Shown: piece by piece, positions 3-32,567 of the stretch
How the letters are laid out: each line of letters starts with the position of its first letter
How positions within the stretch are numbered: position 1 is the first letter of the stretch
DNA from: Planoprotostelium fungivorum
Lineage: Eukaryota > Evosea > Variosea > Cavosteliida > Cavosteliaceae
DNA: 64,000 nucleotides
Direction: 5' to 3'
Assembly (NCBI GenBank): GCA_003024175.1
Contig: MDYQ01000051.1
Span: 62,001 to 126,000, forward strand
The notes under the pieces: generated by a model
What the model was told of the DNA's origin: nothing
What the model saw: the letters and a program-made list of their open reading frames with translations, nothing else
Database searches by the model: none
Program-made: the position numbers and the translations under genes

Positions 3-1537
3 TTGGAGCCCGTCGGGTTGAGCACGGATTTGGGTTGGGGATGTATGCTGAGAACGGGTGAGTGGGATACGTAGGTTACGGGATGACGTGGAACAGGTCA
101 GATGATGTTGGCGACGGTACTCAGGCGATTGATATTGGGTCGAGGTATGATGATCGCATCGGCATCATGATCGATCATCGATCATCCACATAACTTGAAC
201 ATAACTTCGACATACTATCACTCAATATCACATCACCAATCATACCACGAACGTGGTATCACATCATCGTGATCACCCATCATCACATCACATCATCATG
301 ACACGTCCACAGAATGGAAATTAGACTACAACGATCCACCGAAAGCCCACTCGCACTACCGTCAGATCTTGAGGTGGTTCCACGATGATCCGGGACACAA
401 CTGTCCCTACAGCATCCACAACATGCTCAGACTCAGCCGCGAGATCGACAAGAGAAGAGGTCAGAGAAATTCACCGGGCGATCGCGTCGGAGAATGGTTC
501 ACTCCAACTAGAGTCAGCCAGATATTAAAGTGAGCGTCAAGATGTGGCGGGTTGTAGATGGAATTACGACTCATTTTTCACCAGGCACACGGTGAACCAG
601 CACGCACCAGAGTCCTTGAGGATGTACGTATCGAGCGACAGTGTCATCTACAAAGACCAAGTGAGTGGAAAAAAAGGGGAAAAAAGACGCCGAGACTGAG
701 GATAGAAAGGTGTACGCTCTGACTCGCGGCGACCGCGATCGACTGAAAGACATGGACATGATGAAGAGACAATCTATGATTGACATCGGCATCAGACCCT
801 ACAATGATCCCGCCGCACATCTCATCGAGTGGCATCCCATATTCATCCTGGTGAGAAACTCGCAGAAAACTCGCGTGGATCTCGGAAGAATCCGGAAAAA
901 CATCTCACGCCCACAGGTACCACTCAGACTGGGTATCGAGAAGATGAACGCAATGTACATGAGAAGCGTTCAGTTTCTCCTCTCAGTTGAACAGAGCGTT
1001 GGTATCGTTGGTGGTAGGCCGAAACAGTCACTCTACTTTGTCGGCTTCCAAGGTGAAGTAGGGGAGAGGAGAGGGAGGTTGATGTATGGACAGGTGACGA
1101 GTTGATCTATTTGGATCCGCACGTTGTGAGGCCTTCAGTGAAGCCGGAAGATGAATTTGTATTGCAGGTGTGTCGATCGATGACATGATCATGATGATCG
1201 AGCGTCGTTCACCATCATCATTGCCATGTCACTTATCTTGACGTCATCATCAACTCCGTGTGCATCACATCATCATGACACATCATCACACGATAGACAC
1301 TGATGAAGATAGAACTACCACTGTACCATACCCCAAAAGATGTCCATAGAACAGATGGATCCCTCTCTATGTGTGGGCTTCTTCTGCCGCAACGAAGAAG
1401 AGTTCGAACAGCTGTGTGGTACCATCAGTGCCTACAATAGTGGCAACGATCACATCATCATCAGCGTGGAAGACAGTGCACCTCATTACATTTCAGAGGA
1501 ACCTGACCCAGACTTTGCCGATGTTGTCATATTGTGA
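3..1537 (+). CDS. ATG4: Cysteine protease ATG4 (5' partial)
   Basis: Autophagy cysteine protease that processes and delipidates ATG8. Eight exons fit well: 3-57, 97-144, 313-529, 585-660, 710-850, 917-1052, 1094-1167 and 1313-1537, all with GT-AG introns and consistent phase. The first visible exon encodes [10 protein letters not shown] with the catalytic Cys codon at 42-44. Later exons give the PYSIH and GEWFTP regulatory segments, [16 protein letters not shown] and the Asp/His pair in YLDPH. The last exon reads [16 protein letters not shown], the typical ATG4 C-terminal block, and ends in an acidic stretch followed by FADVVIL, which resembles the C-terminal LIR of human ATG4B. The N-terminus lies before the window. 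The gene runs towards the GH43 gene with about 320 bp between them. Family assignment is secure; exact splice sites are inferred by eye. Confidence 0.93.
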
Positions 1538-1858
1538 ATAGAAATGTACGACGAGACGTCTCATCTTCTCATCCTCTTGATGGTGTCTCACGATGAATGG
1601 GGTGCTAACTTTTTTTCAAAGGGCGACTTTGAATGCTTTATTTGGCTTTCGTGCTGAAGTCTATAACGATCGTAACACACAACTGGACTTTCTCATGCTC
1701 GGCTCAAAGAGGGCCAAGCGGTGGGTAGCTCGTCATCTGCCCTACAATGTTGTAGATGGATATCGCGAAAAGGCGAAAGAGTTTTCCTCAATTAGGGTGT
1801 CAGAGATGTCCGTCTATCGGAGCTCATCTCAGCATACAAAGCAGAATCGACGAACACC
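1538..1858. other. Gap between ATG4 and GH43 gene
   Basis: About 320 bp. It holds the ATG4 3' end and the presumed promoter of the GH43 gene. An open frame of 89 codons starts at 1593 but has no recognisable similarity and is followed by the real signal-peptide start at 1859. A palindrome-like CTACAATGTTGTAG lies near 1742-1756, related to the intron palindrome seen elsewhere in this window. Confidence 0.5.
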
Positions 1859-3301
1859 ATGAAGGTCACACTGTGTCTTCTAAGCTTTCTGTCCGTTGCA
1901 GCGGCCTTCCACAATCCCGTCAAGTGTGTGCAGATGTGATATCGAATGAGATTGAACGTCGCAGTCCGATGGAATACTTTGCCGACCCTTGGATCTTCAA
2001 GGTGGACAGATGGTATTACCTCGCAGCTTCCACGGGTGACACGAACAACATGTTCTTTACAACAATCACTCATACAAGAAGGAACGAACAACATCACCAT
2101 CTTGCGATCGAGGGACTTTTCAAACTACAACAATCTGACTACAGAGAATCAGAAGGTCGTCTGGCAGGCTCCACCTGATATCAAGGGTGCATTGTGGGCG
2201 CCAGAGGTCCACATGATCGATGGTTCTCTTTACATGTACTTAGCCGCCAGTGAGATTCACATGACCACCTTCTATCGATTGATCTGAATGAGCCAGCCAA
2301 TGGGACCGAGGACAATGCAGCTCGTCGCATGTATGTCTTAAAAGCAGAGACGAACGATCCATTTGGAAATTGGAATTTGGCTGGAAGAGTATACACTCCG
2401 GGTGAGATCGATGTTCAACACCTCATTTTCTAATGATCGAATGCAGATGACAACTGGGCCATCGATGGCACAGTTTGGCAGCACGATAACGGAAAGTGAG
2501 CTGAATCTGACTCTCCACCTCTCATCTGAACGAACATCAGGAAGTACTTCATCTGGTCTGGATGGACAGACGCTCAACACCCTCTCGACCAATACCTTTA
2601 TATCGGTACGCAATCTCTTCCCCATCTTCGAATCATCTCTAAACACCATCCAATCATCACATCTTCTATCATCTTCTCAACTTCTTCAGCTGAGATGGAG
2701 AGCCCCACCCAATTGATAGGAGAACGTGTTCTATTGCATTCACCCTCTCAACCATGGATGAAGAGTAATGGACAGGGAGTGAATGAGGGTCCAGAGATTC
2801 TAAAGCACGGCGACTTTTATTACCTCATCTACTCTGCCGCAGGAAGGTGAGTGACGTTGCACGATCATGATCGATGATGGAACGGCCGATGATGATGTTC
2901 CAGTTGGGGACCCGATTACTGTCTGGCCATGATGGTTCTGATGGGCGACGATCCTCTTAACCCCTCTCACTGGTGGTCTAAAGACGACGCCCCCGTCTTC
3001 CAATCCGGAAACGGAGGTGATATCATCATCGAATCACCATCCCATCTTCTATAACCAACCTCCATCACCTTCTCATGTCGAGACAGTCTACGCACCCGGC
3101 CATGCTTCCTTCACGAAAGATGATTCTGGACAACATTACATCTTCTATCATGCCGTGACGAAGCCCACCGACTCGTGGGGCCAGAGGACAGTCAGAACTG
3201 AGCCGTTCCACTTTGGACAGAAGGGCTGGCCCATCTTCCCCCATCCTGCAAAGAACTTCACACAAGAAGTCAGAAACCCAAAGATATTCAGAGGTCTATA
3301 G
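1859..3301 (+). CDS. Secreted glycoside hydrolase family 43 protein
   Basis: Probable arabinanase/xylosidase-type GH43 enzyme acting outside the cell on plant or fungal polysaccharide. The start at 1859 gives a clear signal peptide (MKVTLCLLSFLSVAAAF). Spliced exons follow the five-bladed propeller order: YFADPWIF (first catalytic Asp), NNITILRS, GALWAPEVH, then DDNWAIDGTVW (second Asp), a WSGWTDA segment, VNEGPEIL (catalytic Glu, about 2788), SWGPDYCLAMM and YAPGHASFTKD near the end. The reading frame shifts repeatedly between exons, consistent with several short introns such as the one around 2401-2448. All three GH43 catalytic acids are visible. It sits directly upstream of three LPMO-like genes on the same strand, which suggests a joint role in hemicellulose breakdown. 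Substrate cannot be told from sequence alone. Confidence 0.85.
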
Positions 3302-3694
3302 AACATAAACGTTCGTTTCATGATGACGTGTCTCTATCGTCTGAGAGATATGAAAAATCTCCGATATAGAGGGTAGCTTGTGTGGTAGTGATATGTTTTC
3401 GTTCCAATAGAACAGGGACGTCCACCGCGGGGTGCACAAAGACACGACAAACAGAAGCTTCCTCTGCCTGTCGATATAGAGGGTATCGAGACAGTCTCTG
3501 TTGTGCGTTGATGCCTCTGAGCGGTTTCGATGTCCTCTGGCCAGTATACTTTTGAAAGCAGTGTCAATACTGCGACTTGGTTCATGGAAGATGCAAGCAA
3601 AGTGGCATACCGCGAGCTGAGGTGCGATGTCATATGCTCATTTGAGGTGTTCAGACTGGCATCGCTACAAACCATTCTTTCCTCACGCAGCAAC
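3302..3694. promoter_or_regulatory. Upstream region of LPMO-like gene A
   Basis: No gene seen. It contains the promoter block shared with copies B and C: a TATA-like GTATACTTTT at 3544-3553, a 16-bp inverted repeat GCAGTGTCAATACTGC at 3558-3573, and CATACCGCGAGCTGAGG near 3606-3622. A GATATAGAGGGTA element occurs twice, near 3363 and 3473. Confidence 0.5.
3558..3573 (+). promoter_or_regulatory. Promoter inverted repeat, LPMO-like gene A
   Basis: GCAGTGTCAATACTGC, 7-bp arms with one mismatch, 121 bp before the start codon. The same site lies at the same place before copies B and C, just downstream of a TATA-like GTATAYTTTT. It is a candidate binding site for a dimeric regulator; function is inferred. 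Confidence 0.45.
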
Positions 3695-5399
3695 ATGAGA
3701 GGTGTCTCTGTCGTTCTGCTTCTCACTTTGGCTGTGGCCAGTGGTCACCTTGCCGTATGGAACCAGGGTACCTACGACTGCGGCTATCCCGATCCCAACT
3801 CTGACCGTCCCGTGTGGCCTTTGTGGCAGACCGACAAGTGGTGGTGGCACAGCGCTTTAGACTGCAAGCCCAATGGAACACAGTCGGTAAGAAGACATGC
3901 ATTGAGAAGATACGCTAACATCATTCGATATGAGATGTCGGAAGATGCGTCGGACCGATTCTAGATCTGACGAGTAGGATAGATTCCCAGCGGTGGTTCT
4001 CTCAACCTCGAGTTCTCCTCTAACAAGGCCTTCACTTCCATGGGTCAAGGTCTCCTCGCCAACCCCACTCAGAGGCCGAACCCCTGGCCCACTGGAGCCA
4101 CCACTGCCTGGGGAAGTAAGCTACACACCGATAGAGGATGAGAAGTTGATGATGTGATCAGACCTTCACGCTAGCGTCTACCCCGACGACATCATGGGCT
4201 GTGCTCTCGCCATTGCTTACAAGAGCGACCGTTACTCTGTGACCCCCAGTGACTTCATCGTCTTCTCTGGTGCGTCTGACATGGACATACCTCTTAACAT
4301 CGAGACGCTCTCTAACACTCTGCAGTTGTTCAGGACTGCCCCACTAAGCAGCTCCAGACCTTCCAGGTGCGATCTCCTCCTCTGTCGAGCATTACATACC
4401 TGCGGTTCATATGCTTCATTTCATCACGCTGAACCCGATTAGATCCCTCAAATGCCTCCCTGCCCCAGCGGCGGCTGTCAGTGCTCTTGGGTTTGGGTCA
4501 ACAAGTACCATCAATCGGTAATCACCTCCATCGCATCACATTATCTCATCTCCTGCAGTACATGTCCCCCTTCGCCTGCAATGTCACCAGCCCCAACGCT
4601 CGTCTCGGCGTAAGATTCTCATCTCGACATCTCATCTCAAGATCTGATGCGACCATGATGATGGCGTCTGACCTCCATAGGTCCCCACTCCTCAAGTTCC
4701 CACCGATTGCACGAACGGTGGCACTTGCGTCAGCGGTGCCAAGACTCCCCTCTTCTACGGCACTCCCACTCAGTCTTTCGCCCCCCTCGTGCCCATCCGT
4801 GACACGATCTTCCAGCTGGTGAGTGATGACGTCATCACAAGTCTAACAACATGACAGTCACCCCGCTACAAGTCCACATGGGGATTCAACGAGGGAGCCC
4901 AGCGTGTCTTCCCCGCTCGTGCCAGAGGTAAAGACAGTCGTTCATCAAGGCTCGTGGCTGATGGTGAACAGTTGTGGCCGCCGCAGAGAAGGTGCAGAAG
5001 GAGGTCTATGCCTTCAAGCCCAACTCTCCTTCCAGAATCGACGTCTCTGTCGGTCCCCAGATGGTCGGATTCGACAACCCAGGCGGTGAGATTTTATTTC
5101 TCTTTTATTCTTCACTTTTGCGACTCTTCTCATCTTCCAACAGGTGACATCGACAACGGCTACTTACCCAACACCAACTCTGCCAACGACTGCCAGACTC
5201 AGTGTGTCAACAGAACACCTGCTCTCACTGGTCAGTGCTATGCCTGGTCATGGAACACACAGTCGAAGGAGTGCTGGCTGAAGGGAGTTGCCTTCAACCC
5301 TGTCAGCGTGAGTGGAAAGAGAGAAGAGTCGTGTGAGCTGACGAAGAGCAGAACCCCAACATGATCGCTGGAACAGTCAACAGAGTGTGGGTGGCTTGA
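3695..5399 (+). CDS. AA14-like LPMO with PAN-like domain, copy A
   Basis: Predicted secreted copper monooxygenase that cuts polysaccharide oxidatively. About 11 exons give roughly 377 residues. A signal peptide (MRGVSVVLLLTLAVASG) is followed directly by His18, so cleavage would expose the N-terminal His of a copper histidine brace; a second His lies in WWWHS (residue 52). The core resembles AA14 LPMOs: GCALAIAYKSDRYSVTP, DFIVFS, QMPACPSGGCQC, YMSPFACNV and WGFNEGAQ, in the family order. After NPGG comes a PAN/apple-like module with Cys in DCQTQC, GQCYAWSW and KECWLK. Exon 1 is 3695-3886. The last exon encodes QNPNMIAGTVNRVWVA and stops at 5397-5399; an AATAAA follows at 5432. First of three tandem copies. 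AA14 assignment rests on remembered family motifs. Confidence 0.78.
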
Positions 5400-6112
5400 G
5401 AGAGTGTCTGCCACTGTGTTCACGAAAAGTGAATAAAGTCATCTGCCTAGATGTGTGCTCATTCAATTTGGACATCGTTCCTTTTACTCTCGATGGGTTG
5501 AATGTTTCATAGGGTGATATGAACGACAGACACACCTGTTGGTTTCCTTCTCGTCCATATCATCGATGTGATTTTAGATAGCGGCATACACCTTTCCATA
5601 TTACATGTGCGATCTCTTACTCTCCGACACTTGTTTCACATGCACTGATCGATTCGGTCAGAATCCTCCATGATGACACCAAGGTGAACACACCGTTCGG
5701 ATCGAGTCGCGACATATATGTAGCAACTGACGGCAGTTCTCTCTTCAGTGGAGGGCGTAGGTTGCGATGTGATGGATTCAAGTCAATTCTCTCACTTTGA
5801 CAAGGAAGGGGACATCTGACCTCGGTCCAAAAACAATGGTTTAGCGCGAAAATTTTATGACACATCGGAAGTGCTTCGCCGCCAAGCGTGCACGAAGACA
5901 AGACGAACAGAAGCTTCCTCAGTCGATATGAAGGGCATCAAAACAGTCTCTGTTGTGAGCTGATCCCTGTCCTCTCAGCCAGTATATTTTTGAAAGCAGT
6001 GTCAACACTGCGGAAGAAACAAAGTGACATACCGCGAGCTAAGGAGAGGTCTACGTCTATGTCTTTGCGCTGAGGCGCTGGACTGCAAACCATTCTTTCC
6101 TCACGCAGCAAC
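5400..6112. promoter_or_regulatory. Spacer between LPMO-like copies A and B
   Basis: No gene. The first 95 bp match the 3' flank of copy B almost base for base (polyadenylation signal at 5432-5437). The segment from about 5730 is recognisably homologous to the spacer before copy C, so the duplicated unit includes its promoter. The promoter carries GTATATTTTT at 5982, the palindrome at 5996-6011, and AAAGTGACATACCGCGAGCT at 6021-6040. Confidence 0.6.
5996..6011 (+). promoter_or_regulatory. Promoter inverted repeat, LPMO-like gene B
   Basis: GCAGTGTCAACACTGC: 7-bp perfect arms around CA, 101 bp before the start codon of copy B and downstream of a TATA-like GTATATTTTT. This copy is the perfect version of the sites before copies A and C. 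Confidence 0.5.
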
Positions 6113-7801
6113 ATGAGAGGTGTCTCTGTCGTCGTGCTTCTCACCTTGGCTGTGGCCAGTGGTCATCTTTCCGTGTGGAACAAGGGTACCTACGACTGCG
6201 GCTATCCCGATCCCAACTCTGACCGTCCAGTCTGGCCTCTGTGGCAGACCGACAAGTGGTGGTGGCACAGCGCTTTAGACTGCAAGCCCAATGGAACTCA
6301 GTCGGTGAGAAGACATGCAATAAGAGGATACGATACAATCATACGATATGAAATGTCGGGCATCACGATAAGATGGCGAGTTCTGATGAGAAGGATAGAT
6401 TCCCAGCGGTGGATCTCTCAACCTCGAGTTCTCCTCTAACAAGGCTCACACCTCTATGGGCCAGGGACTTCTCCCCAACCCCACTCAGAGACCCAACCCG
6501 TGGCCCACTGGAGCCGTCACTGCCTGGGGAAGTGAGCTACACACCGATAGAGGATGAGACGTTGACGAAATCCTCAGACCTCCACGCTAGCGTCTACCCC
6601 GACGACATCATGGGCTGTGCTCTCGCCATTGCATACAAGAGCGACCGCTACTCCGTGACCCCTAAGGACTTCATTGTCTTCTCCGGTAAGGACATCTGAA
6701 ATAGAGCCGCCTTCTGACACTCTGCAGTTGTTCAGGACTGCCCCACTAAGCAGCTCCAGACCTTCCGGGTGCGATCTCATCTTCCATGGCATCACACAGC
6801 CCTCGATTTTATTTCAATACTGAACTCTAATAGATTCCCCCCATGCCCGCCTGCCCCAGAGGAGGTTGCCAGTGCACTTGGGTGTGGATCAACAAGTACC
6901 ATCAGTCGGTAACATCTCCATCCTCTTCCGTCACATCACGTGAACTCATCTTCTACAGTACATGTCCCCCTTCGCTTGCAACGTCACCAACCCCAGCGCT
7001 CGTCTTACCGTAAGCCCTCTCATCTCGTCATCTCATCTCCACATCTCACGTGATGATGAAACGTTGATGTCTGATGTATATAGGTCCCCACCCCCAAAGT
7101 TCCCACCGATTGCACGAACGGTGGCTCTTGCGTCAGCGGTGCTAAGACTCCCCTCTTCTACGGCACTCCCACTCAGTCTTTCGCCCCCCTCGTGCCCATC
7201 CGTGACACGATCTTCCAGCTGGTGAGTGATGACGTCATCACACGTCATAACGATGTGACAGTCACCCCGCTACAAGTCCACATGGGGATTCAACGAGGGA
7301 GCCCAGCGCGTCTTCCCCTATCGTTCGCAAGGTAAAGACATTTGTTCATGACTTGTGGCTGATGATGAACAGCTGCTGCAGCTGTAGAGAAGGTAGAGAA
7401 GGAGGTCTATGCGTTCAAGCCCAACTCTCCTTCCAGAATTGACGTCTCTGTTGGACCTCAGATGGTCGGATTTGACAACCCAGGCGGTGAGATTTTATTC
7501 CCTTTTATTCTTCACTTTTGCGACTCTTCTCATCTTCCAACAGGTGACATCGACAACGGCTACTTACCCAACACCAACTCTGCCAACGACTGCCAGACTC
7601 AGTGTGTCAACAGAACACCTGCTCTCACTGGTCAGTGCTATGCCTGGTCATGGAACACACAGTCGAAGGAGTGCTGGCTGAAGGGAGTTGCCTTCAACCC
7701 TGTCAGCGTGAGTGGAAAGAGAGAAGAGAGTCGTGTGAGCTGACGAAGAGCAGAACCCCAACATGATCGCTGGAACAGTCAACAGAGTGTGGGTGGCTTG
7801 A
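6113..7801 (+). CDS. AA14-like LPMO with PAN-like domain, copy B
   Basis: Second tandem copy, same exon layout and length as copy A, with an intact signal peptide ending in G before HLSVW. Conserved segments are the same: WWWHSALDC, GCALAIAYKSDRYSVTP, MPACPRGGCQCTW, YMSPFACNV, AKTPLFYGTPTQSF and the Cys-containing PAN-like exon. From about 7502 to 7890 the DNA, including two introns and the 3' flank, is nearly identical to copy A, whereas the middle exons are closer to copy C. This mosaic suggests gene conversion. The stop is at 7799-7801 and AATAAA at 7834. No break in the coding sequence was noticed. Function as for copy A. Confidence 0.78.
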
Positions 7802-8389
7802 GAGAGTGTCTGCCACTGTGTTCACGAAAAGTGAATAAAGTCATCTGCCTAGATGTGTGCTCATTCAATTTGGACATCGTTCCTTTTACTCTCCATGACT
7901 TCAAATTTCATAGGGTGATGTCAACGACAGTCTCTCGTTCAGATCATGATTTTAATCGCATAATACGTGCGACTTCGAACGGCAGCATTGATAGATGTCT
8001 TCTCAGTGGAAGGCATGAGCTGCGATGTGATGTGAATTCTCTCACTTTGACAAGAAAGGGGACAGGTCCAAACGATTCAGAGCGAAATTTTTTTGTGACG
8101 CATCCGGAAAAATTAACATCCTCAACGGGTTTATGCAAGACAAGATGATCAGAAGCTTCCTCAGGCGATTCAGAGGTACAGAGGCAATGTCTGTTGTGAG
8201 CTGATGCCTCTGAGCGGTTTCGATGTCCTCTCAGCCAGTATATTTTTGAAGGCAGTGTCAATACTGCGGATTACATAGCCAAAGTATGAAACAAACAAAG
8301 TGACATACCGCGGGCTAAGGAGAGGTCTACGTCTTTGCTGAGGCGCTGGCCTGGCATCGGTACAAACCATTCTTTCTTCAGGCAGCAAC
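7802..8389. promoter_or_regulatory. Spacer between LPMO-like copies B and C
   Basis: No gene. Starts with the 3' flank shared with copy A, then a stretch homologous to the A-B spacer, then the shared promoter: GTATATTTTT near 8238, GCAGTGTCAATACTGC at 8252-8267, and AAAGTGACATACCGCGGGCT around 8297-8316. Confidence 0.6.
8252..8267 (+). promoter_or_regulatory. Promoter inverted repeat, LPMO-like gene C
   Basis: GCAGTGTCAATACTGC, 122 bp before the start codon, identical to the site of copy A and one base from the perfect palindrome of copy B. Confidence 0.45.
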
Positions 8390-10080
8390 ATGAGAGGTGT
8401 CTCTGTCGTCGTGCTTCTCACCTTGGCTGTGGCCAGTGGTCACCTTTCCGTGTGGAACAAGGGTACCTACGACTGCGGCTATCCCGATCCCAACTCTGAC
8501 CGTCCCGTGTGGCCTTTGTGGCAGACCGACAAGTGGTGGTGGCACAGTGCTTTAGACTGCAAGCCCAATGGAACACAGTCGGTGAGAAGACATGCAATAA
8601 GAGGATGCGATACATCATACGATATGAAATGTCGAGCATCACGACATGACGGATGACGTCTGATGAGAAGGATAGATTCCCAGCGGTGGTTCTCTCGCTC
8701 TTGAGTTCTCCTCTAACAAGGCTCACACCTCCATGGGTCAAGGTCTCCTCGCCAACCCCACTCAGAGGCCTAACCCCTGGCCCACTGGAGCCGTCACTGC
8801 CTGGGGAAGTGAGTTATACGCTGGTAGAGGAAGAGAAGTTGATGATGTGACCAGACCTCCACGCTAGCGTCTACCCCGACGACATCATGGGCTGTGCTCT
8901 CGCCATTGCATACAAGAGCGACCGCTACTCTGTGACCCCTAAGGACTTCATTGTCTTCTCCGGTATGAATGTCTAACATCGAGACACCTCCTAACACTCT
9001 GCAGTTGTCCAGGACTGCCCCACTAAGCAGCTCCAAACCTTCCAGGTACGATTTCACCCTCCATCGGGGATCTCACTCGGTTTTATTTCATCACACTAAG
9101 CTCGACCAGATCCCTCAGATGCCCGCCTGCCCCAGTGGAGGCTGCCAGTGCACCTGGGTGTGGGTCAACAAGTACCATCAGTCGGTAATCACCTCCATCT
9201 CCATCGTATCACGTGAACTCAACTTCTACAGTACATGTCCCCCTTCGCCTGCAACGTCACCAACCCCAACGCTCGTCTCAGTGTAAGCCCTTTCATCTGG
9301 ACACCTCATCCTCAGATCTCATGACTGTGATGATCTCTGACGTCTATAGGTCCCCACTCCTCAAGTTCCTACCGATTGCACGAACGGTGGCTCTTGCGTC
9401 AGCGGTGCCAAGACTCCCCTCTTCTATGGCACTCCCACTCAGTCTTTTGCTCCCCTCGTGCCCATCCGTGACACGATCTTCCAGCTGGTGAGTGATGACG
9501 TCATCACACGTCATAACGATGTGACAGTCACCCCGCTACAAGTCCACATGGGGATTCAACGAGGGAGCCCAGAGTGTCTTCCCTTCTCGTGCCAGAGGTA
9601 AAGACATTTGTTCATGACTTGTAGCTGATGATGAACAGCTGCTGCAGCCGTAGAGAAGGTAGAGAAGGAGGTCTATGCGTTCAAGCCCAACTCTCCCTCT
9701 AGAATCGACGTCTCTGTCGGTCCCCAGATGGTCGGATTTGACAACCCAGGCGGTGAGATTTTATTTCCTTTTATTCCTCACTGTTATTCTTGACTTTTGA
9801 TGCTTTTCTTACCTTCCAACAGGTGACATCGACAACGGCTACTTGACTAACGTCGCCTCTGCCAACGACTGCCAGACACAGTGTGTCAACAGAACACCTG
9901 CTCTCACTGGTCAGTGCTATGCCTGGTCATGGAACACACAGTCGAAGGAGTGCTGGCTGAAGGGAGTTGCCTTCAACCCTGTCAGCGTGAGTGGAAAGAG
10001 AGAAGAGAGTCGTGTGAGCTGACGAAGAGCAGAACCCCAACATGATCGCTGGAACAGTCAACAGAGTGTGGGTGGCTTGA
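8390..10080 (+). CDS. AA14-like LPMO with PAN-like domain, copy C
   Basis: Third tandem copy. Signal peptide MRGVSVVVLLTLAVASG followed by HLSVW, then WWWHSALDC, GCALAIAYKSDRYSVTP, MPACPSGGCQCTW, YMSPFACNVTNPNARL and the PAN-like exon. That exon begins differently from A and B (GYLTNVASANDC) but from about 9900 it is again identical to them. The intron before it (from 9753) is longer than in A and B and contains an extra T-rich stretch. Stop at 10078-10080, AATAAA at 10111-10116. The gene converges on the P4-ATPase gene, whose stop is 170 bp away. No break seen. Confidence 0.78.
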
Positions 10081-10249: not shown

Positions 10250-13200
10250 TTAAATGTTGACCTCGCTCTTTACATCACTCGGTGGTGAAGGGTGAGAGGT
10301 AGGAGAGTCCCTCAGTATGCCAGCTTGTTCCATTCTCTCTCTCTCCCTCAGGATCATCCAGTTCTCGGGGAAGTAGTTGGTGTACACACTGGTTACTGTG
10401 TGAGTCATCGTGTCATACATCATCGATCACACGATGATCACATGATCCATCGTTCACGATGGTGATCGCATGGACGTCTCATCATTGCACGATCGTGATC
10501 ACATGGACACACGATCACATCACAAAGACGATGATCATGATGATGATCGACTCACCATGCAAAGATGAAATCGGGCAACAGACAGAAGCCAACGCCGAGC
10601 AAGAGACCCCACCAGAATGAAGGAATCTGAACCGCAGTGAAAGCTTCGAAATAACCCTTGGGCCAGAAAGAAGAGAAGGAGCTGATGAGAACATCTGCGA
10701 TGATGTAGACGAGATAACTAGCGATGACGAAGCCAATGAGAACGCGAGTCCAATAGCTGAGAGTGCATCAGGTGATGATGATCAATCAGATGGTGATCGA
10801 TCAGATGATGGTGATCGCATGAGACGATATAGAGGATGATGATGTTGATGATGAGATGACTCACACGATGGATAGGGAGATCTTGAGAAGCACGACGAGA
10901 ATGACTAGAGTGGCCAACAGCTGTCCCATCAGGTACAGATCGTTCGTTCTACCGTGCAGCATGACGGGTTCGATGCTGAAGATCAACCAGACGATCATGA
11001 ACGCAACTGTGATTCATCAATCAATTGTTCTTAGACATGATGATGATGATCATGATGATCATGGTGGTGATGATCTTCTTGATGGTGATGTCATAAACTT
11101 ACTCCAAGAATGATAGATGGCAGATGACAACCAAAGTCCGACCGTCTTGAAATTGAAATAATCTCCCGTCTTGAGATCTTGATACAATTTCGGATTCTGC
11201 ACTCGTCAACACCCCATCATGATCATCACGATCATCATCACGATCGTCATCATCATCATCACCTCGTAGATGGTCTTCTCTAAGACATCCTTCATGAACA
11301 GAGCCGTGAAGAAAGGAGGTGCGGAAGTGAAAATGATATTGTACCCCGTCAGAATCCAATCGTCATACATGGTCTGACCGCTGTACCCAGAATAGAAGGC
11401 GTACCAGAATTGAACGAAACCGAACGCCATGTTCTTGTAAAAGGACTGATGGATGCAGGCTAGATTTCTGACGTACGAATATCTGCCGTGAACCGTGAGC
11501 AGTCTCTTCAAGAAGGAGAATTGACCGATGGCGTAGTCACTGGCTCGTGCGGCTTGTGTGCCTTCTTTACCAAAGATGCCGACACCGATGTGTGCCTCTT
11601 GGATCATGCTGACGTCGTTGGCGCCGTCTCCAATGGAGAGGCAGACTTCCTTCTTTGCTTCTTTGATCGTGCGGACGACTTCGGCCTGGATGGAATCAGA
11701 TTTTATTTCATTTTATTTCGAAGAAATTGGGAAGATGTAAGAAGAGTTAGAGTGAAATGATATCGAACGAGAGAGACATCTACAACGTTGTAGATGAACG
11801 TGAATAAATGAGATGAAAATCACACCTTCTGCAACGGTGTGACTCTGCAACAAACGGCGGCAGACGCCAAGTTTGTCAATTCGACAAAGTCTTCAGAACA
11901 TTCTTTCAAAGCATAGTAGATGGAGTCACCGTCTATGACTACAGCGATGGGGGGGCCTCCACTGTGCTTCTGTACGGCATCTCTCAACAGCTGCTTGCAC
12001 TGCTCTCCCGGGTTGTCACCGTTCTTGTCTATGTTGATGATGACTTGAGGTTGTTCTCTCGTGATGAGTTTGGTAGAGTAAGCGATGTTGATGGCCGTCT
12101 GTTGTTTGTCTCCGGTGATGACCCACACTTTCATTCCACACTGGAAGTGTCAGATGTCGTCTCTCTTCTTTGTCGAGGGTTCATGATTCTTCCTTCTATT
12201 TCTATATTTCTTCTATTTCTCTTGTCTTCTGTTTTTGTATGTCTTCTGTTTTTGTATGTCTTCTATTTTTGTATGTCTTCTATTTCTGTTGTCTTCTATT
12301 TTTATATGTCTTCTACTTGTACGTGTCTTTGCATTCATTTTCCATGTCTCTTCTCATTCGTTTCTATCGTCTCACCTGCAGTAGATATTCTATGGTATCT
12401 GGTACGCCCTCTTGTAATTTGTCCTCGATGGCAGTGCAGCCGATGATCTCCAAGTCTTGTTCGATCAATTCGCAGACCTGAACGAGTTGAGAGGGAGAAG
12501 GTAGAGTGGACTTCACCTTGTTGACGTTCTCGTTGCGGTTGTGGAGAGAAGTGCTGGCAGCGTGGTACTGTTTGTTCCACTCTTCGTATTCTCTCTCGCT
12601 GTTCGTTCTCAGTCTTCGCTCTATGATGATGATCGTGATGCATGATGATCATCTCATGATGGAGGATGGTGGATGATGATGACACATGATGGATGATGAT
12701 CAAGATCACGAACGATGATTACCTAAGATGACGTCTGGCCACCACCAACGTTCTCAACCCGAAATTCGAAAAGTCATCGAGGTGTCTCAGACTGGCCGCA
12801 TAGACGTCCGCACCCTTCCCCTCGCCCTTGCTCTTGTTTCCCACCCTCTTCAAGATCTGCGTGTCTGATCCTTTGCTGTAGAGGATGATGCTGCCGTCGG
12901 GCTTCCTCAAGATAACGGATGATCTGGCCCTCTCTGACGTGAATTCGAGATTGGCGAGAACCTATCTACAATCAGCCAGATATTTGGGAGAAAGTTGAAA
13001 GAGAAAACGAGTGAAATGTTCAAAAGAAGAAAGTCTTTAGAAAAGAGCAGAAATCGAAAAAGGAGAAAAAATAAAATCTTCATCTTGAGAAAGACCAAAT
13101 TTTCACCTCGTAATTCTTCTCTTCTCCCATCTCTGTTGTAGTGATTCCTTTGATGCCAGTCGCCCTGAAGACAAATCCATTGACGCGAGCACCATCCACC

Positions 13201-15406
13201 AGCGCCGACTCGTCTGGTGACTGAGCCTGGTAGTACAACTCTCCCTTCTCGTTCTCTTCTGCGATGACAGCGTGACACACCGACAGAGCTCGAACGAAAT
13301 CTGCAATGTATTCCAACTGCTCTTCGTTCTCTGACCTCTCTTCCATCACCTTTTTCAGTTCACCTGCACGTCGTCACGAGACGTCGTTGAAAACTCGCGG
13401 AGAATTCGATGAAAATTCACCCTTCATCATGTCGTGGTACACGATGCCGCCGACGGAGCTGCGATCGAAGACCATCATGTTCTGTGTGAGAGTTCCCGTC
13501 TTGTCGCTGAAGATGTACTTCACGAGGGCAAGCTCATCATTGAGGTTGGATGTCTTTGCGAGCATTCCAGATTCAGGGTCGTTGCGGTCGGTCATCATCT
13601 CCTTGTCCCATTCCATGAAACGAGCTGAAGTGGATGAGATGATGATGGATGATCGCGATCGATGATGTGATGGTCGTGATGATGAGAGTGGTAGACGATG
13701 GATGATGAGAATAGTGGACGACGGATGATGATCGATCGTCATGATGATGATGGATGACTCACCTTGGAAGACCTTTACAATCTCCAGAGTCACAAATAGA
13801 GATTGTGGAATGAGGTAAGACAAGAGCACAATGTAAGAGAAGAAGACCAAGATACCAGTGACAGGTGCACTGGTCGTATTCCTGAGATACCACTTGTCTC
13901 CATTTCCCTGTATTCAACTTTAAATCCATTTCAAATGAATCAAATCTCGTCCCAATAGAATAAAATAGAATAAAATACCTGAAATACTCCTCCCAATACG
14001 GCCAATATGAAGCAGCAGACGAACATGAAGGCGAAAATACCTCCCACGATCTTGTTCATCTGTCTATCCATGCTGGAAAACTTTGAAGGTGGGTTCCTCT
14101 GGTTCAAAGACAGCTTACTGTCACTACCTCCATACACGATGACTCCGTAGGTCCAAGCGGTGTTACGTATGGCGGTACCCTATTTCTCCGTCATTTCTCC
14201 GGCGTGGATCTACAACGAGCCGAACTCTCTCACTCTCAACAGCAACTGCTTCGTGTCCAGAGCGATGGTCTTGTCGTTCAACTTGAGACGAGCGTGGAAA
14301 GTATAGAAGAGAGGGTGCGGCTCTTCACATTCGACCGTTCCTCTTAATCGACAGAGGGAGTCCTCCGATAGAGCTTCTGTCTCTTTTACTGCCTTCAATT
14401 GTTTCAAATTACTCTCCCTGAGAGGGTCAATCTACAGCGTTGTATATGGAAGATTTCGGGAAATATTTTCACCCGTCGAGTTGGGCCGTCTCTACGAAGC
14501 AGAGGGACTCGGGCAGGGCGGTCTTTAAGAGGAGAACGTCGGCGGGTAAGAAGCTGTTTTTCTCCAGATAGAGGACGTCGCCCACTTTCAGATCCTTCGA
14601 TGAGACCTGCATGTCGAATGAGATGGATGAGATGATGTGATGTAGAGACCTCTCTCTTCGTTCCATCGGTCTGTAAGACACTGTATTTTCGATAGTTGGC
14701 CTTGTGATCCGCTTTGTATCGGTTCTTGCATCGAGTCAACACGGACAATGTGATGGAAGATGGACTCACGATGTCTTCGTAAGCCTCGCGTAGAGCGCTC
14801 ACAACGAGAATGAAGACGAGAGGAACCACCGAAGTGTAGGGAGTCACGGGTGAGATGCTTGGAATGAACGTAATGACAACCACGCCAAGGAAAAAGATCT
14901 GTCCGCGGGTGAGCCATCTGCATCGTAAAGAGGGGAATGGATAGAGGATCGACATCGTCTCTCACATTGGTGACTTTCCGAAACTGTTCAAATAATAGTT
15001 TCGGTAGAAAGTTGAATGGATTATACTTGGTCGTGCTGATGCGATTGGAGGGGAATCTGAGACGTGTGAGTCCATGAGAGGGTTGTCGTCCGTGGCTCAC
15101 CTCTTTCCGTGATTCTCCTCAGCTTCGGTCACATTGAAATGGATGTTGGGATAAATGTTCCATCTTGGCTTGTGATTTCCTCTCTTCTTTCCGGCCGCAA
15201 CTTGCAGCAGTGCTTCCCTCTATGCAACGACTTCAGATTTCGCACCAATTTACGCGATAAAACCCCACCGTTCCCTTCTTTCTCCTCTGTCCCTGTTCTT
15301 TCTTTCCATCCAGATCGATCTCAACTAATTCTAATGCATTTGGATTGTTGATCGCTTCTTGCTGCAGCTGCGCAGTATTATCGTTGAGGTCTCGTTCCTG
15401 TTCCAT
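10250..15406 (-). CDS. P4-type ATPase, phospholipid flippase
   Basis: Membrane pump that moves aminophospholipids to the cytosolic leaflet. The start at 15406 ([10 protein letters not shown]) precedes a short intron and the exon [12 protein letters not shown]; next come [20 protein letters not shown], typical of the P4 N-terminus, the [12 protein letters not shown] segment (P4 PISL-like helix), the phosphorylation motif [15 protein letters not shown] with the Asp near 13505, the nucleotide-binding [28 protein letters not shown], and the [19 protein letters not shown] hinge near 11600. The C-terminal membrane region includes [19 protein letters not shown]. The protein ends in a hydrophilic tail with stop at 10252-10250. 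It would probably need a CDC50 partner; none is present here. Introns include members of both repeated intron families (13918-13978, 14418-14472, 11686-11825). Confidence 0.93.
11686..11825 (-). repeat. Intron with 20-bp palindrome and T-rich module
   Basis: P4-ATPase intron between LQK and [12 protein letters not shown]. It contains the perfect palindrome CATCTACAACGTTGTAGATG at 11777-11796. It also has the T-rich module in the orientation opposite to the gene: GATTTTATTTCATTTTATTT from 11699, followed by CGAAGAAATTGGGAAG. Confidence 0.7.
12196..12325. repeat. Tandem repeat in P4-ATPase intron
   Basis: About six degenerate copies of a 17-18 bp unit, TCTTCTRTTTTTGTATG on the plus strand, within a P4-ATPase intron. 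An open plus-strand frame here (rich in Phe, Tyr, Cys and Ser) is only a by-product of the repeat. Confidence 0.7.
13918..13978 (-). repeat. T-rich introner-like intron (P4-ATPase)
   Basis: 61-nt intron starting GTATTTTATTCTATTTTATT and continuing CTATTGGGACGAGA, clearly related to the introns at 25203-25251 and 36089-36140 in unrelated genes. Confidence 0.65.
14418..14472 (-). repeat. Palindrome-type introner-like intron (P4-ATPase)
   Basis: 55-nt intron holding, in gene orientation, ATATACAACGCTGTAGAT (14430-14447 on the plus strand) flanked by CC before and TGACCC after, the same arrangement as the introns at 21843, 53719 and 58455. Confidence 0.65.
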
Positions 15407-15950
15407 CACGAGCGCGCCCCTCGAATGAGAAGTCCGTCCGGCAGATCGTGTTTACCGATCACCTTTTGGGGGATTTTATTCAACGTTTGCCTCCTTTTCC
15501 GCCTCTTGGTTTCCAGCGCGGCTGCACCGATGAAGAGATGTCTTTATGAAACGACGTCGGGGATTGTGAGCCCCGAGGAGGTCTGCGGCTTCTCTTTCGG
15601 CGATCATCATCGCGACATCTAACACGTCTCCTCATCAATATCGCAGAAAATCACAAATGTATATCAGCTCGATCCATGAAGACATCTATACATCGAACGT
15701 CTCTATGGACAAGAGAAAGATATAAAGACAATAAAATCGTAAATAAATTCAAACGCTTTGAGACCTCCGGAACCCTCGTTGTAGTTGACGTCATCGTTGC
15801 ATTTCAATGAAGAGGAAAACGAACATTTTTACCTTTCCATCACAACTTTCACGGATCACAAACACACAGACGCGCGAGTATCCCGTCTGTCTTTCTATAT
15901 CCACACACCAGAACAGAACAAGAAGAAAAATCAACAAGAACCAATCAGAC
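15407..15950. promoter_or_regulatory. Bidirectional region, P4-ATPase / PB1-ZZ gene
   Basis: About 540 bp between two divergent starts. The first part is GC-rich and the last 250 bp are AT-richer. No coding region was recognised. The frame of the PB1-ZZ gene stays open back to 15807, so a longer N-terminus cannot be excluded. Confidence 0.4.
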
Positions 15951-17123
15951 ATGCAAGCTATCAAGTTTCGTCAAGGACCCCAGGTCCGCAGAGACAGCTT
16001 AGACACCAGCAAGCTCACTTACGCTTCCCTCTTAGAGGCATTCTCCCAGCTATACGGCAACCCCATTCCCGAAGGCCATTCGTTACGTTATCGAGACGAG
16101 GTCGAGCTGGTGGACATCTCTTCTGATAGAGAGCTACGCGAGGCTTTACGCATCAACAAGGACAGAGTCCTTGAATTCGTGGTCACCCCCAATCACTTTG
16201 GACACCAACATTTCGGTCAGTTTGGAGGGTGGAGAGGCCCCCACCCCCACCGAGGAGGACACAGACACCACCATAGACACGAGGGACAACAGCAACACCA
16301 CCGCGGTCCCTTCGTTCATGGTCCAATCAACCCCCGACCTCAAGAGGAGGAGGAAGCCCCCTTCCATCACCCAGCCATCTGCGACGCCTGCAACAACCAC
16401 ATTGTGGGCATCCGACACAAGTGCAACGTCTGCGTCGATTACGATCTCTGTGCCAACTGCATCGGAGACGCCGAAGACAAGCACCCCGGTCACGCATTCA
16501 CCGAGATGAAGAGGTCCCCCGTACCTTGGGGCCGTTTCCACAGATGCCACAAGCCTCAGCCCAGCGACAATCAGCAGCCGATGCCATTCAGACACCCCGC
16601 CAAGTGTGACGACTGCAACAAGGACATCATCGGAGTCAGACACAAGTGCAACGACTGCCCCGACTATGACCTCTGCGACACCTGCTTCGAGCGATCATCC
16701 ATCATCCACCCCGATCACACCTTCAACCGCCTCGAGCGCAGCTACATGAGGTGGCACCACCACGGAAGAAGATGCGGTAGACAGCAGCAGCAGCCATCGC
16801 AGGAGGATCAGAAGGAGGTCCAGCCCGAGCCCACCCTACCTGCCACCGAGATCGATCAGGAGATCGATCAAGTCCAGCCCGAAATTGAGGTAGCCGCAAC
16901 CATCGAGGAGGCTGCCCCCGTCACCGAGGAGAAGGAGGTAGAGCCTCAGGTGCATGATGCCAAAGAGGATGAGCCCGTCCAGGCTGCACCCAAGCCAGGC
17001 ATCGTCGGAGCCATCCAGGTTCTCGAGAGCATGGGATTCACCGACAAGCCAAAGAACGTGAGACTGCTCCTGCAGTGCAACGGAGACATCGACTCTGTCT
17101 TGGAGATCTTGCTCTCGGAGTAA
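15951..17123 (+). CDS. PB1-ZZ-ZZ-UBA protein, p62/NBR1-like
   Basis: Probable selective-autophagy receptor or ubiquitin scaffold. One exon, 390 residues from the ATG at 15951, chosen because the PB1 domain starts right there (MQAIKFR). PB1 spans about 1-80 with basic IKFR and the acidic YRDEVELVDISSDREL cluster, so head-to-tail self-assembly is possible. A His-rich linker follows (95-118). Two ZZ zinc fingers are at about 140-186 (HPAICDACNNH, HKCNVC, DLCANC) and 215-262 (HPAKCDDC, HKCNDC, DLCDTC). An acidic linker (285-345) leads to a UBA domain, 350-390 (LESMGFTD, LLLQCNGDIDSVLEILLSE). Animal p62 has one ZZ. The acidic linker has no aromatic residue, so a standard LIR is missing there. The absence of introns is unusual in this window. 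AATAAA at 17153-17158. Confidence 0.9.
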   Translation: MQAIKFRQGPQVRRDSLDTSKLTYASLLEAFSQLYGNPIPEGHSLRYRDEVELVDISSDRELREALRINKDRVLEFVVTPNHFGHQHFGQFGGWRGPHPHRGGHRHHHRHEGQQQHHRGPFVHGPINPRPQEEEEAPFHHPAICDACNNHIVGIRHKCNVCVDYDLCANCIGDAEDKHPGHAFTEMKRSPVPWGRFHRCHKPQPSDNQQPMPFRHPAKCDDCNKDIIGVRHKCNDCPDYDLCDTCFERSSIIHPDHTFNRLERSYMRWHHHGRRCGRQQQQPSQEDQKEVQPEPTLPATEIDQEIDQVQPEIEVAATIEEAAPVTEEKEVEPQVHDAKEDEPVQAAPKPGIVGAIQVLESMGFTDKPKNVRLLLQCNGDIDSVLEILLSE

Positions 17124-30924: not shown

Positions 30925-32567
30925 TTAGGGGATCCAGATTCTGTTGACTGTTCCAGCGATCATGTTGGGGTTCTACTCATCATCAGCTCACACGACTCTT
31001 CTCTCTTTCCACTCACGCTGACAGGGTTGAAGGCAACACCCTTCAGCCAGCACTCCTTCGACTGTGTGTTCCATGACCAGGCGTAGCACTGACCGGTGAG
31101 AGCAGGTGTTCTATTGATGCACTGAGTCTGGCAGTCGTTGGCAGAGTTGGTGTTGGGCAAGTAACCGTCAGCGATGTCACCTGTTGGAAGATGAGAAGAG
31201 TCTCACAAGTGAAGAATAAAAGGGAATAAAACCTCACCGCCTGGGTTGTCAAATCCAACCATCTGAGGTCCAGCAGACACGTCGATTCTGGAGGGAGAGT
31301 TGGGTCTAGAGAAATACATCTCCTCCTTCACATCCTTCTCCATCATGAAGCGTGCTAATCTCATCGTCAGCGCCATCTTCTAAAAGACGACGTCTCACCT
31401 TGTCTCTTGGGGAAGACACTCTGAGCTCCCTCGTTGAATCCCCAGTTGGACTTGTAGCGGGGAGACTGTCACATCGTTATGACGTGTGATGACGTCATCA
31501 CTCACCAGCTGGAAGATGGTGTCGCGGATGGGCACGAGGGGGGCGAAGGACTGAGTGGGAACTCCATAGAAGAGGGGAGTCTTAGCACTGCTAACGCAAG
31601 AGCCACCGTTCGAGCAGTCGGTTGGGATATCGGGCCTGGGGGCCTGACAGATCAGATGAGACTCGAAGTTTGGGACGGTGACGATGATAGCTCACGTAGA
31701 GGGTGCTGTCGCCGTTGGTGACGTTGCAGGCGAAGGGGGACATGTACTGCAGAAGATGAGATCACGTGATGTGACGGAAGATGGAGGTGATTACCGACTG
31801 ATGGTACTTGTTGATCCACACCCAAGTGCACTGGCAGCCTCCTCTGGGGCAGGGAGGCATGGCAGGGATCTGTGTGTCGTGAATAAAATGAAATAAAAGG
31901 ATGAGACGAAACGAGATGCAAGGGGAGAGATGTGTACCTGGAAGGTCTGGAGCTGTCTGGCGGGGCAGTCCTGGGCCACTGGATGGACGTTAGAAGATGA
32001 GTTCGTCAAGATGCTTCGTACCGGAGAAGACAATGAAGTCCTTGGGGGTCACGCGGTATCGGTTGCTCTTGTAAGCGATGGCGAGAGCACATCCCATGAT
32101 GTCATCGGGGTATCGATCGGCATGCATGTCTAAGAGGAGTCAATCTCTTCCAACGGATCTGCTGAAGAACTCACTTCCCCACTCGTTCACGTTTCTCCAG
32201 GGGTTAGGCACTTGGTCTGGGTTAGCTCTGAGACCCTGTCCCATAGAGGTCCATGCCTTGTTATCTGCCAGCTCGAGTTGGATGCTTCCACCGCTGGGGA
32301 TCTGTGAGGTTCCGTCAGTACGCGATCCTCAATCACATCACATCATATCGTATCCTCTTAATGTCGTGCGCTCACCGACTGAGTTCCGTTGGGCTTGCAG
32401 TCTAAAGCGCTGTGCCACCACCACTTGTCGGTCTGCCACAGAGGCCAGACTGGACGGTCAGAGTTGGGATCGGGGTAGCCACAGTCGTAGGTACCCTTGT
32501 TCCACACGGCAAGATGACCGCTGGCCACAGCCAAGGTGAGAAGCACGACGACAGAGACACCTCTCAT
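30925..32567 (-). CDS. AA14-like LPMO with PAN-like domain, copy D
   Basis: Fourth copy, about 21 kb from the tandem array and on the other strand. Signal peptide MRGVSVVVLLTLAVASG is followed by HLAVW, again placing His at the mature N-terminus, and WWWHSALDC is kept. The middle has diverged: GGSIQLELADNKAWTSMGQG, VPNPWRNVNEWG, SNRYRVTPKDFIVFS, QLQTFQ, MPACPRGGCQCTWVWINKYH. The PAN-like exon (GYLPNTNSANDCQTQCINRT, GQCYAWSWNTQSKECWLK) is nearly the same as in copies A and B. It ends NRIWIP with the stop at 30927-30925. Upstream, only the ACATACTGCGAG part of the shared promoter (32629-32653) is kept; the 16-bp palindrome was not found. No break seen. Confidence 0.75.

What the first reader, a model, noticed from the sequence alone, without database searches (positions are those of the whole stretch)
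1859..10080. Eukaryotic CAZyme cluster: GH43 plus three AA14-like LPMO-PAN genes
A GH43 gene and three tandem secreted genes lie head to tail on one strand. The latter expose His right after the signal peptide and carry GCALAIAYKSD, PACPSGGCQC and FACNV in the order of xylan-active AA14 LPMOs, which to my knowledge are known mainly from fungi. The fused C-terminal PAN/apple-like module is unusual and might bind carbohydrate or protein. A fungus-eating or plant-litter amoeba could use this as an oxidative plus hydrolytic hemicellulose system.
Basis: partly seen in the sequence, partly recalled or inferred. Interest (0 to 1): 0.85.

Follow-up and report, generated by a model that had tools for sequence, protein, structure and literature searches.

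The report
Expanded copper-enzyme family in an amoeba
Four genes in this window, and about 23 in the whole genome, appear to encode secreted copper enzymes of a family (AA14) known mainly from fungi, here in what looks like an amoeba and fused to PAN or lectin-like modules, possibly for breaking down the walls of its food.

Summary
An intron-rich GH43 gene (1859-3301) and three head-to-tail 377-aa genes (3695-5399, 6113-7801, 8390-10080) splice cleanly at GT/AG sites. The three match AA14 (Pfam E 1.8e-43 to 1.3e-42; solved LPMO 5no7, E 4.4e-29) and carry a C-terminal PAN domain. A fourth copy lies on the minus strand at 30931-32567. The genome holds 23 AA14 gene models on 14 contigs. PAN or bulb-lectin-like tails recur. 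Dict-STAT-coil and Dicty_CTDC matches, one CTDC on the window's contig, point to Amoebozoa. GH10 and GH11 gave no match; GH71 and GH18 gave 33 each. A xylan system is therefore the weaker reading; fungal-wall digestion is somewhat better but unproven. GH43 next to the AA14 genes may be chance. New variant of a known kind: non-fungal, expanded, module-bearing AA14.

The parts
1859..3301 (+). GH43 glycoside hydrolase gene, 9 exons (1859-1923, 1965-2035, 2082-2249, 2297-2401, 2447-2495, 2541-2605, 2690-2846, 2904-3016, 3087-3298 + stop), 335 aa, signal peptide by eye
   Evidence: splice sites; Pfam GH43 1e-50; PDB 9nxj 6.1e-41; 3akf 5.5e-39
3695..5399 (+). AA14-PAN gene B, 11 exons, 377 aa; codon of the likely mature N-terminal His 3746-3748
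6113..7801 (+). AA14-PAN gene C, 11 exons, 377 aa
8390..10080 (+). AA14-PAN gene D, 11 exons, 377 aa; codon of the likely mature N-terminal His 8441-8443
30931..32567 (-). AA14-PAN gene E, fourth copy in the window, 11 exons, 374 aa aligned
   Evidence: AA14 1.5e-41; PAN_1 22.4 against 21.4 bits
5144..5307 (+). PAN exon of gene B
7544..7707 (+). PAN exon of gene C
9823..9986 (+). PAN exon of gene D
31017..31180 (-). PAN exon of gene E

Best explanation
Genes B, C, D and E encode secreted AA14-family copper monooxygenases (LPMOs) of an amoebozoan, recent copies of a family that has grown to about 23 genes. Signal-peptide removal would expose His18 as residue 1; with His111 and Tyr184 it would form the copper histidine brace (residues shown by alignment; cleavage and copper binding inferred). 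The reduced copper site would use O2 or H2O2 to cut chains in a compact polysaccharide (inferred from the family), and the C-terminal PAN module, or the bulb-lectin-like module in sister genes, would hold the enzyme on glycans or glycoproteins of the target (inferred). Hydrolases then finish the job. The target is more likely a wall of ingested food, fungal walls being the best single guess, than plant xylan (inferred from gene content, weak).
For: AA14 profile: E 1.8e-43 to 1.3e-42 for B-D, 1.5e-41 for E. Solved LPMO 5no7: 4.4e-29 over residues 18-261. Brace: His in the H1 column in 19 of 19 models whose first exon was recovered (4 of 23 were not), His in the H99 column in 23 of 23, Tyr in the Y176 column in 19 of 23. 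Selection keeps the protein: dN/dS 0.11-0.27 for six pairs. Expansion: 52 exon matches on 14 contigs, 23 gene models. Amoebozoan markers. GH71 33 and GH18 33 exon-level matches against none for GH10 and GH11.
Against: No activity, copper binding, expression or secretion was tested; signal peptides are by eye. The whole-protein fold was not predicted. GH71 and GH18 are exon-level counts, include likely duplicate contigs, and the strongest GH71 locus has an odd composition; GH18 enzymes have many roles. GH76, another fungal-wall family, gave only 2 matches. Other xylanase and glucanase families were not searched. The species is not identified, so fungus eating is not shown. Four of 23 models have Phe for Tyr.
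Confidence: 0.7

Rival explanations
1. Plant-litter hemicellulose system: AA14 oxidises xylan-coated cellulose and GH43 removes arabinose side groups.
For: GH43 adjacent on the same strand, its PDB relatives include arabinofuranosidases and xylosidases; TrAA14A oxidises cellulose, xylan and xyloglucan (PMC10885436, passages).
Against: No GH10 or GH11 match while controls rang; no AA9 match, though no control rang there; xylan activity of PcAA14A not reproduced by Tuveng et al. as reported in PMC10885436; 4 of 5 GH43 places lie on contigs without an AA14 match (compare). Other xylanase families were not searched.
Confidence: 0.25
2. LPMO-like proteins that bind copper or act in the amoeba's own coat, matrix or fruiting-body wall remodelling rather than in feeding.
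For: LPMO-like proteins of family X325 act in copper homeostasis, and an AA9 LPMO is proposed to remodel the wall of its own fungus (PMC10166503, passages); the brace residues would be kept in either case.
Against: A 23-model family with varied tails fits feeding better than a single housekeeping role; inference only.
Confidence: 0.2
3. The AA14 genes are contamination from a fungus in the amoeba culture.
For: AA14 is mostly fungal (over 90 percent, PMC6950343, passages).
Against: Dicty_CTDC matches on two AA14 contigs, C427 and C61; 4-mer profile of AA14 loci close to loci with amoebozoan markers, though no fungal genome was compared; 23 models, many with PAN or lectin-like tails, against 1-4 genes per wood-decaying fungus (PMC10885436).
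Confidence: 0.04

Closest known systems
Fungal AA14 LPMOs (PcAA14B, PDB 5no7, name recalled; TrAA14A)
   Same: Profile match over the catalytic core, 33-39 percent identity to 5no7, same brace residues in most
   Different: Amoebozoan host; 23 models against 1-4 per wood-decaying fungus (PMC10885436); C-terminal PAN or lectin-like module where surveyed AA14 have nothing, a GPI anchor or an unknown, mostly disordered tail (PMC8615602, passages)
PAN/apple domains (PF00024, PF14295)
   Same: Over a Pfam cut-off in 8 of the 10 AA14 models scanned
   Different: Fused to an LPMO; ligand unknown; short-exon fold prediction was inconclusive
Bulb-type (D-mannose) lectins (PF01453)
   Same: A profile of five sister-gene tails finds lectin-like bacteriocins, agglutinins and mannose lectins at E 1e-9 to 7e-4
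   Different: Single tails stay below Pfam's cut-off (best 27.9 against 32.4 bits) or match nothing; not seen in the window's own genes
GH43 arabinofuranosidases/xylosidases (3akf, 5m8b, 9nxj)
   Same: Full-length GH43 domain
   Different: Subfamily not tested; the label GH43_26 for 3akf and 5m8b is recalled

Membership tests
AA14 LPMO | Match to the AA14 profile above the curated cut-off | tested here: met
   142.7-252 bits against 27 for the ten spliced models scanned of 23
AA14 LPMO | His as first residue after the signal peptide | tested here: met
   B, C, D, E by sequence; 19 of 19 models with first exon; cleavage site judged by eye
AA14 LPMO | Second brace His and axial Tyr at the AA14 positions | tested here: met
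   His111 and Tyr184 align with His99 and Tyr176 of 5no7; that these two are the ligands of PcAA14B is recalled, the equivalent trio in TrAA14A is in PMC10885436. Met in B-E; 4 of 23 models elsewhere have Phe
AA14 LPMO | Immunoglobulin-like LPMO fold with the three residues at one copper | not tested
AA14 LPMO | Copper-dependent oxidative activity | not testable with these tools
   Needs purified protein
PAN domain | Pfam PAN match above cut-off | tested here: met
   B, C, D, E: 22.4-23.6 against 21.4 bits, a thin margin; tail alone also PAN_4 28 against 27 (typed with one wrong letter outside the matched stretch)
PAN domain | PAN/apple fold | tested here: inconclusive
   54-residue exon, three sequences, mean pLDDT 71.5; 41 PDB matches at E <= 10, none at E <= 0.001
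GH43 | Pfam GH43 match above cut-off over the full domain | tested here: met
   173.2 against 32.2 bits, profile 1-288 of 288

The most novel reading that the evidence does not exclude
A fungus-eating amoeba has turned AA14 LPMOs into a predation arsenal: some 23 copper enzymes aimed by PAN or mannose-lectin-like modules at fungal wall glycans and working with GH71 and GH18 enzymes, which would mean that the long-disputed natural substrate of AA14 includes fungal wall polysaccharide rather than xylan.
Probability: 0.25. Interest if true: 0.75.

Novelty: new variant of a known kind. Interest (0 to 1): 0.55.

Why it matters
The substrate of AA14 is disputed, and the characterised enzymes that I saw described are fungal. 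A large, varied, module-bearing AA14 family in an amoeba in which no GH10 or GH11 xylanase was detected gives an independent natural experiment on what AA14 is for, and new enzyme architectures to test.

Tried and rejected
His52 as copper ligand: rejected by alignment. A viral or prokaryotic relative without introns, for folding: none in viral contigs (33 stretches matched a pattern, none confirmed) or genome contigs (45 stretches, none confirmed). PAN fold by prediction of the 54-residue exon: inconclusive. The first, wrongly spliced model of L009 showed no PAN match and a seeming lectin remnant; the refined model has PAN_4 38.2 bits and not that remnant. Species identification by 18S rRNA: the search gave no answer twice; a paper on a protosteloid genome (PMC5006619, passages) gave nothing to compare with. 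A tree with fungal AA14: only one fungal sequence (5no7) was at hand, so origin (ancestral or transferred) is not tested; the tree tool flags its long branch. The first scan missed one gene on C452, found. No tRNA gene in the window (bacterial code).

Literature, all within the held open-licence library: AA14+lytic polysaccharide monooxygenase 80 papers, 30 listed; AA14+LPMO+oomycete 17, 15 listed; AA14+amoeba+CAZyme 0; AA14+LPMO+Amoebozoa 0; AA14+LPMO+bulb-type lectin 0; AA14+LPMO+protist 2, neither opened; Protostelium+cell wall+glucanase 0; two of Protostelium, monooxygenase, lectin, chitinase 6,768, none of the 8 listed naming Protostelium; lytic polysaccharide monooxygenase+Dictyostelium 17, 12 listed, of which PMC7720654 was opened and its passages name a Dictyostelium AA10 protein, so LPMOs as such are not new in amoebae. 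Papers opened, passages only: PMC5006619, PMC10885436, PMC10166503, PMC8615602, PMC7720654, PMC6950343; most listed papers were not opened.

Full report
What is there. The window is part of a 471-contig, 36.9-Mb genome. Hand and scripted splicing give a nine-exon GH43 gene of 335 aa at 1859-3301 and three 11-exon genes of 377 aa at 3695-5399, 6113-7801 and 8390-10080, all on the plus strand; every intron is GT/AG, and those of the three are 39-96 bases long. The three share 352, 356 and 361 of 377 residues pairwise and sit in tandem units with about 2.4 and 2.3 kb spacing. A spliced alignment over the whole window adds a fourth, E, on the minus strand at 32567-30931.

Family. B, C and D match Pfam LPMO_AA14 at 146.9-149.7 bits and PAN_1 at 22.5-23.6 bits (cut-off 21.4); E at 143.3 and 22.4. 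Of two PDB sequences at E <= 10 the only real one is 5no7, an LPMO, E 4.4e-29; the other is 0.67. The alignment puts His18 on His1, His111 on His99 and Tyr184 on Tyr176 of 5no7. That 5no7 is PcAA14B and that His99 and Tyr176 are its copper ligands is recalled; the equivalent His, His, Tyr trio of TrAA14A, said to be conserved in the Pc enzymes, is described in PMC10885436 (passages).

A family, not a cluster. The AA14 profile finds 52 exon-level matches on 14 contigs. Spliced alignment gives 22 models and a missed one was recovered: 23. Four lie on the window's contig, four on C415, three on C452, two on C216 and one on each of ten others. L015 and L017 are nearly identical and one may be an assembly duplicate; no first exon was found for L013, which may be broken. 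His is in the H1 column of 19 of 19 models with a first exon and in the H99 column of 23 of 23; Tyr is in the Y176 column of 19 of 23, and the other four (L013, L015, L017, L018) have Phe. Identity to 5no7 is 33-39 percent. In the tree the window's four with L020 and L021 form one group (100/99); the single fungal sequence is a long branch and its placement is not informative. dN/dS among B-E is 0.11-0.27 in six pairs, so the copies are under purifying selection.

Tails. Of ten models scanned, of 23, eight pass a Pfam PAN cut-off (B, C, D, E, L009, L020 and two on L010), L019 falls just below and L021 has none; an earlier, wrong model of L009 had shown none. Other sisters (L011, L012, L014, L016, L018) carry a different tail. 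Five such tails, joined by hand from printed frames, match B_lectin only below cut-off (E 3.4e-6 to 2e-4 in three of five, 0.044 in one, none in one; the L012 tail matches PQQ_2 better, also below cut-off), and pieces of L018 and L015 gave nothing at E <= 1. Their joint profile finds 34 PDB sequences at E <= 10, 16 of them at E <= 0.001, from pyocin L2 (1.1e-9) through agglutinins and a mannose lectin to curculin, GAFP-1 and a LysM-domain protein, which I recall as bulb-type lectins. A 2021 survey describes AA14 C-termini as absent, GPI anchors or unknown and mostly disordered tails (PMC8615602, passages).

Host. Dict-STAT-coil gives two matches, both over cut-off, and Dicty_CTDC 22 matches, 20 over cut-off, ten of the 22 in one array on C91, one on the window's contig 7.3 kb before the window and one on C61, which also bears an AA14 gene. 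None of the 14 control genomes rings for either, but the controls named in these searches are prokaryotes, so that is no test of amoebozoan specificity, which I recall. AA14 loci and marker loci have similar 4-mer profiles (r with the window 0.86-0.96 and 0.91-0.92), without an outside control. The species is not identified; a fungus-eating protosteloid is a guess.

Function. GH10 and GH11 gave no match although controls rang in 4 and 1 of 14; the search is exon by exon, so this is not proof of absence, and other xylanase families were not searched. AA9 gave none but no control rang. GH71 gave 33 exon matches, GH18 33, GH76 2 and GH43 9 at five places. On C362 a GH71 gene lies about 6.6 kb from an AA14 gene. 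Mycoparasitic Pythium also carry GH71 and GH43_26 that other oomycetes in that study lack (PMC7720654, passages). This tilts the substrate toward fungal walls but does not show it. AA14 xylan activity is contested, and an ascomycete AA14 acts on cellulose and xyloglucan (PMC10885436, passages). The yeast Cryptococcus neoformans also has an AA14 gene, substrate unknown (PMC10166503, passages).

Novelty. AA14 is reported as more than 90 percent fungal (PMC6950343, passages) with 1-4 genes per wood-decaying fungus (PMC10885436). My searches of the held library found no paper with AA14 and amoebae or AA14 and bulb-type lectin; AA14 with PAN was looked for only inside PMC8615602 (0 occurrences). 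Protein databases could not be searched, and such genes may already be listed there. I file it as a new variant of a known kind.

Noticed in passing
L013, L015, L017, L018: A divergent AA14 subgroup has Phe at the axial Tyr position; L015, L017 and L018 have upstream what reads as a signal peptide ending before HYAMM (by eye).
   Followed up: partly
L032 and L021 (contig C362): A GH71 alpha-1,3-glucanase gene lies about 6.6 kb from an AA14 gene in which no PAN tail was found.
   Followed up: no
contigs C23/C125, C65, C30/C61 of G000: Identical GH71 scores on C23 and C125, mirrored GH18 genes on C65, and near-identical AA14 on C30 and C61 suggest duplicated assembly pieces.
   Followed up: no
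L033 (contig C321): The strongest GH71 locus differs in composition from the window (GC 0.548, 4-mer r 0.63); it could be long-exon coding bias, recent transfer or contamination.
   Followed up: no
window 273-1862, +: Pieces resemble an ATG4-type cysteine protease by eye; not tested.
   Followed up: no
window 11206-15118, -: Pieces with DKTGT and [11 protein letters not shown] motifs look like a P4-type ATPase; recalled motifs; the one piece scanned (13377-13913) matched no family.
   Followed up: partly
window 15789-17123, +: Single long exon with ZZ fingers (two stretches, E 4.8e-18) and a weak PB1 match (below cut-off), like p62/NBR1 autophagy receptors (likeness recalled).
   Followed up: partly
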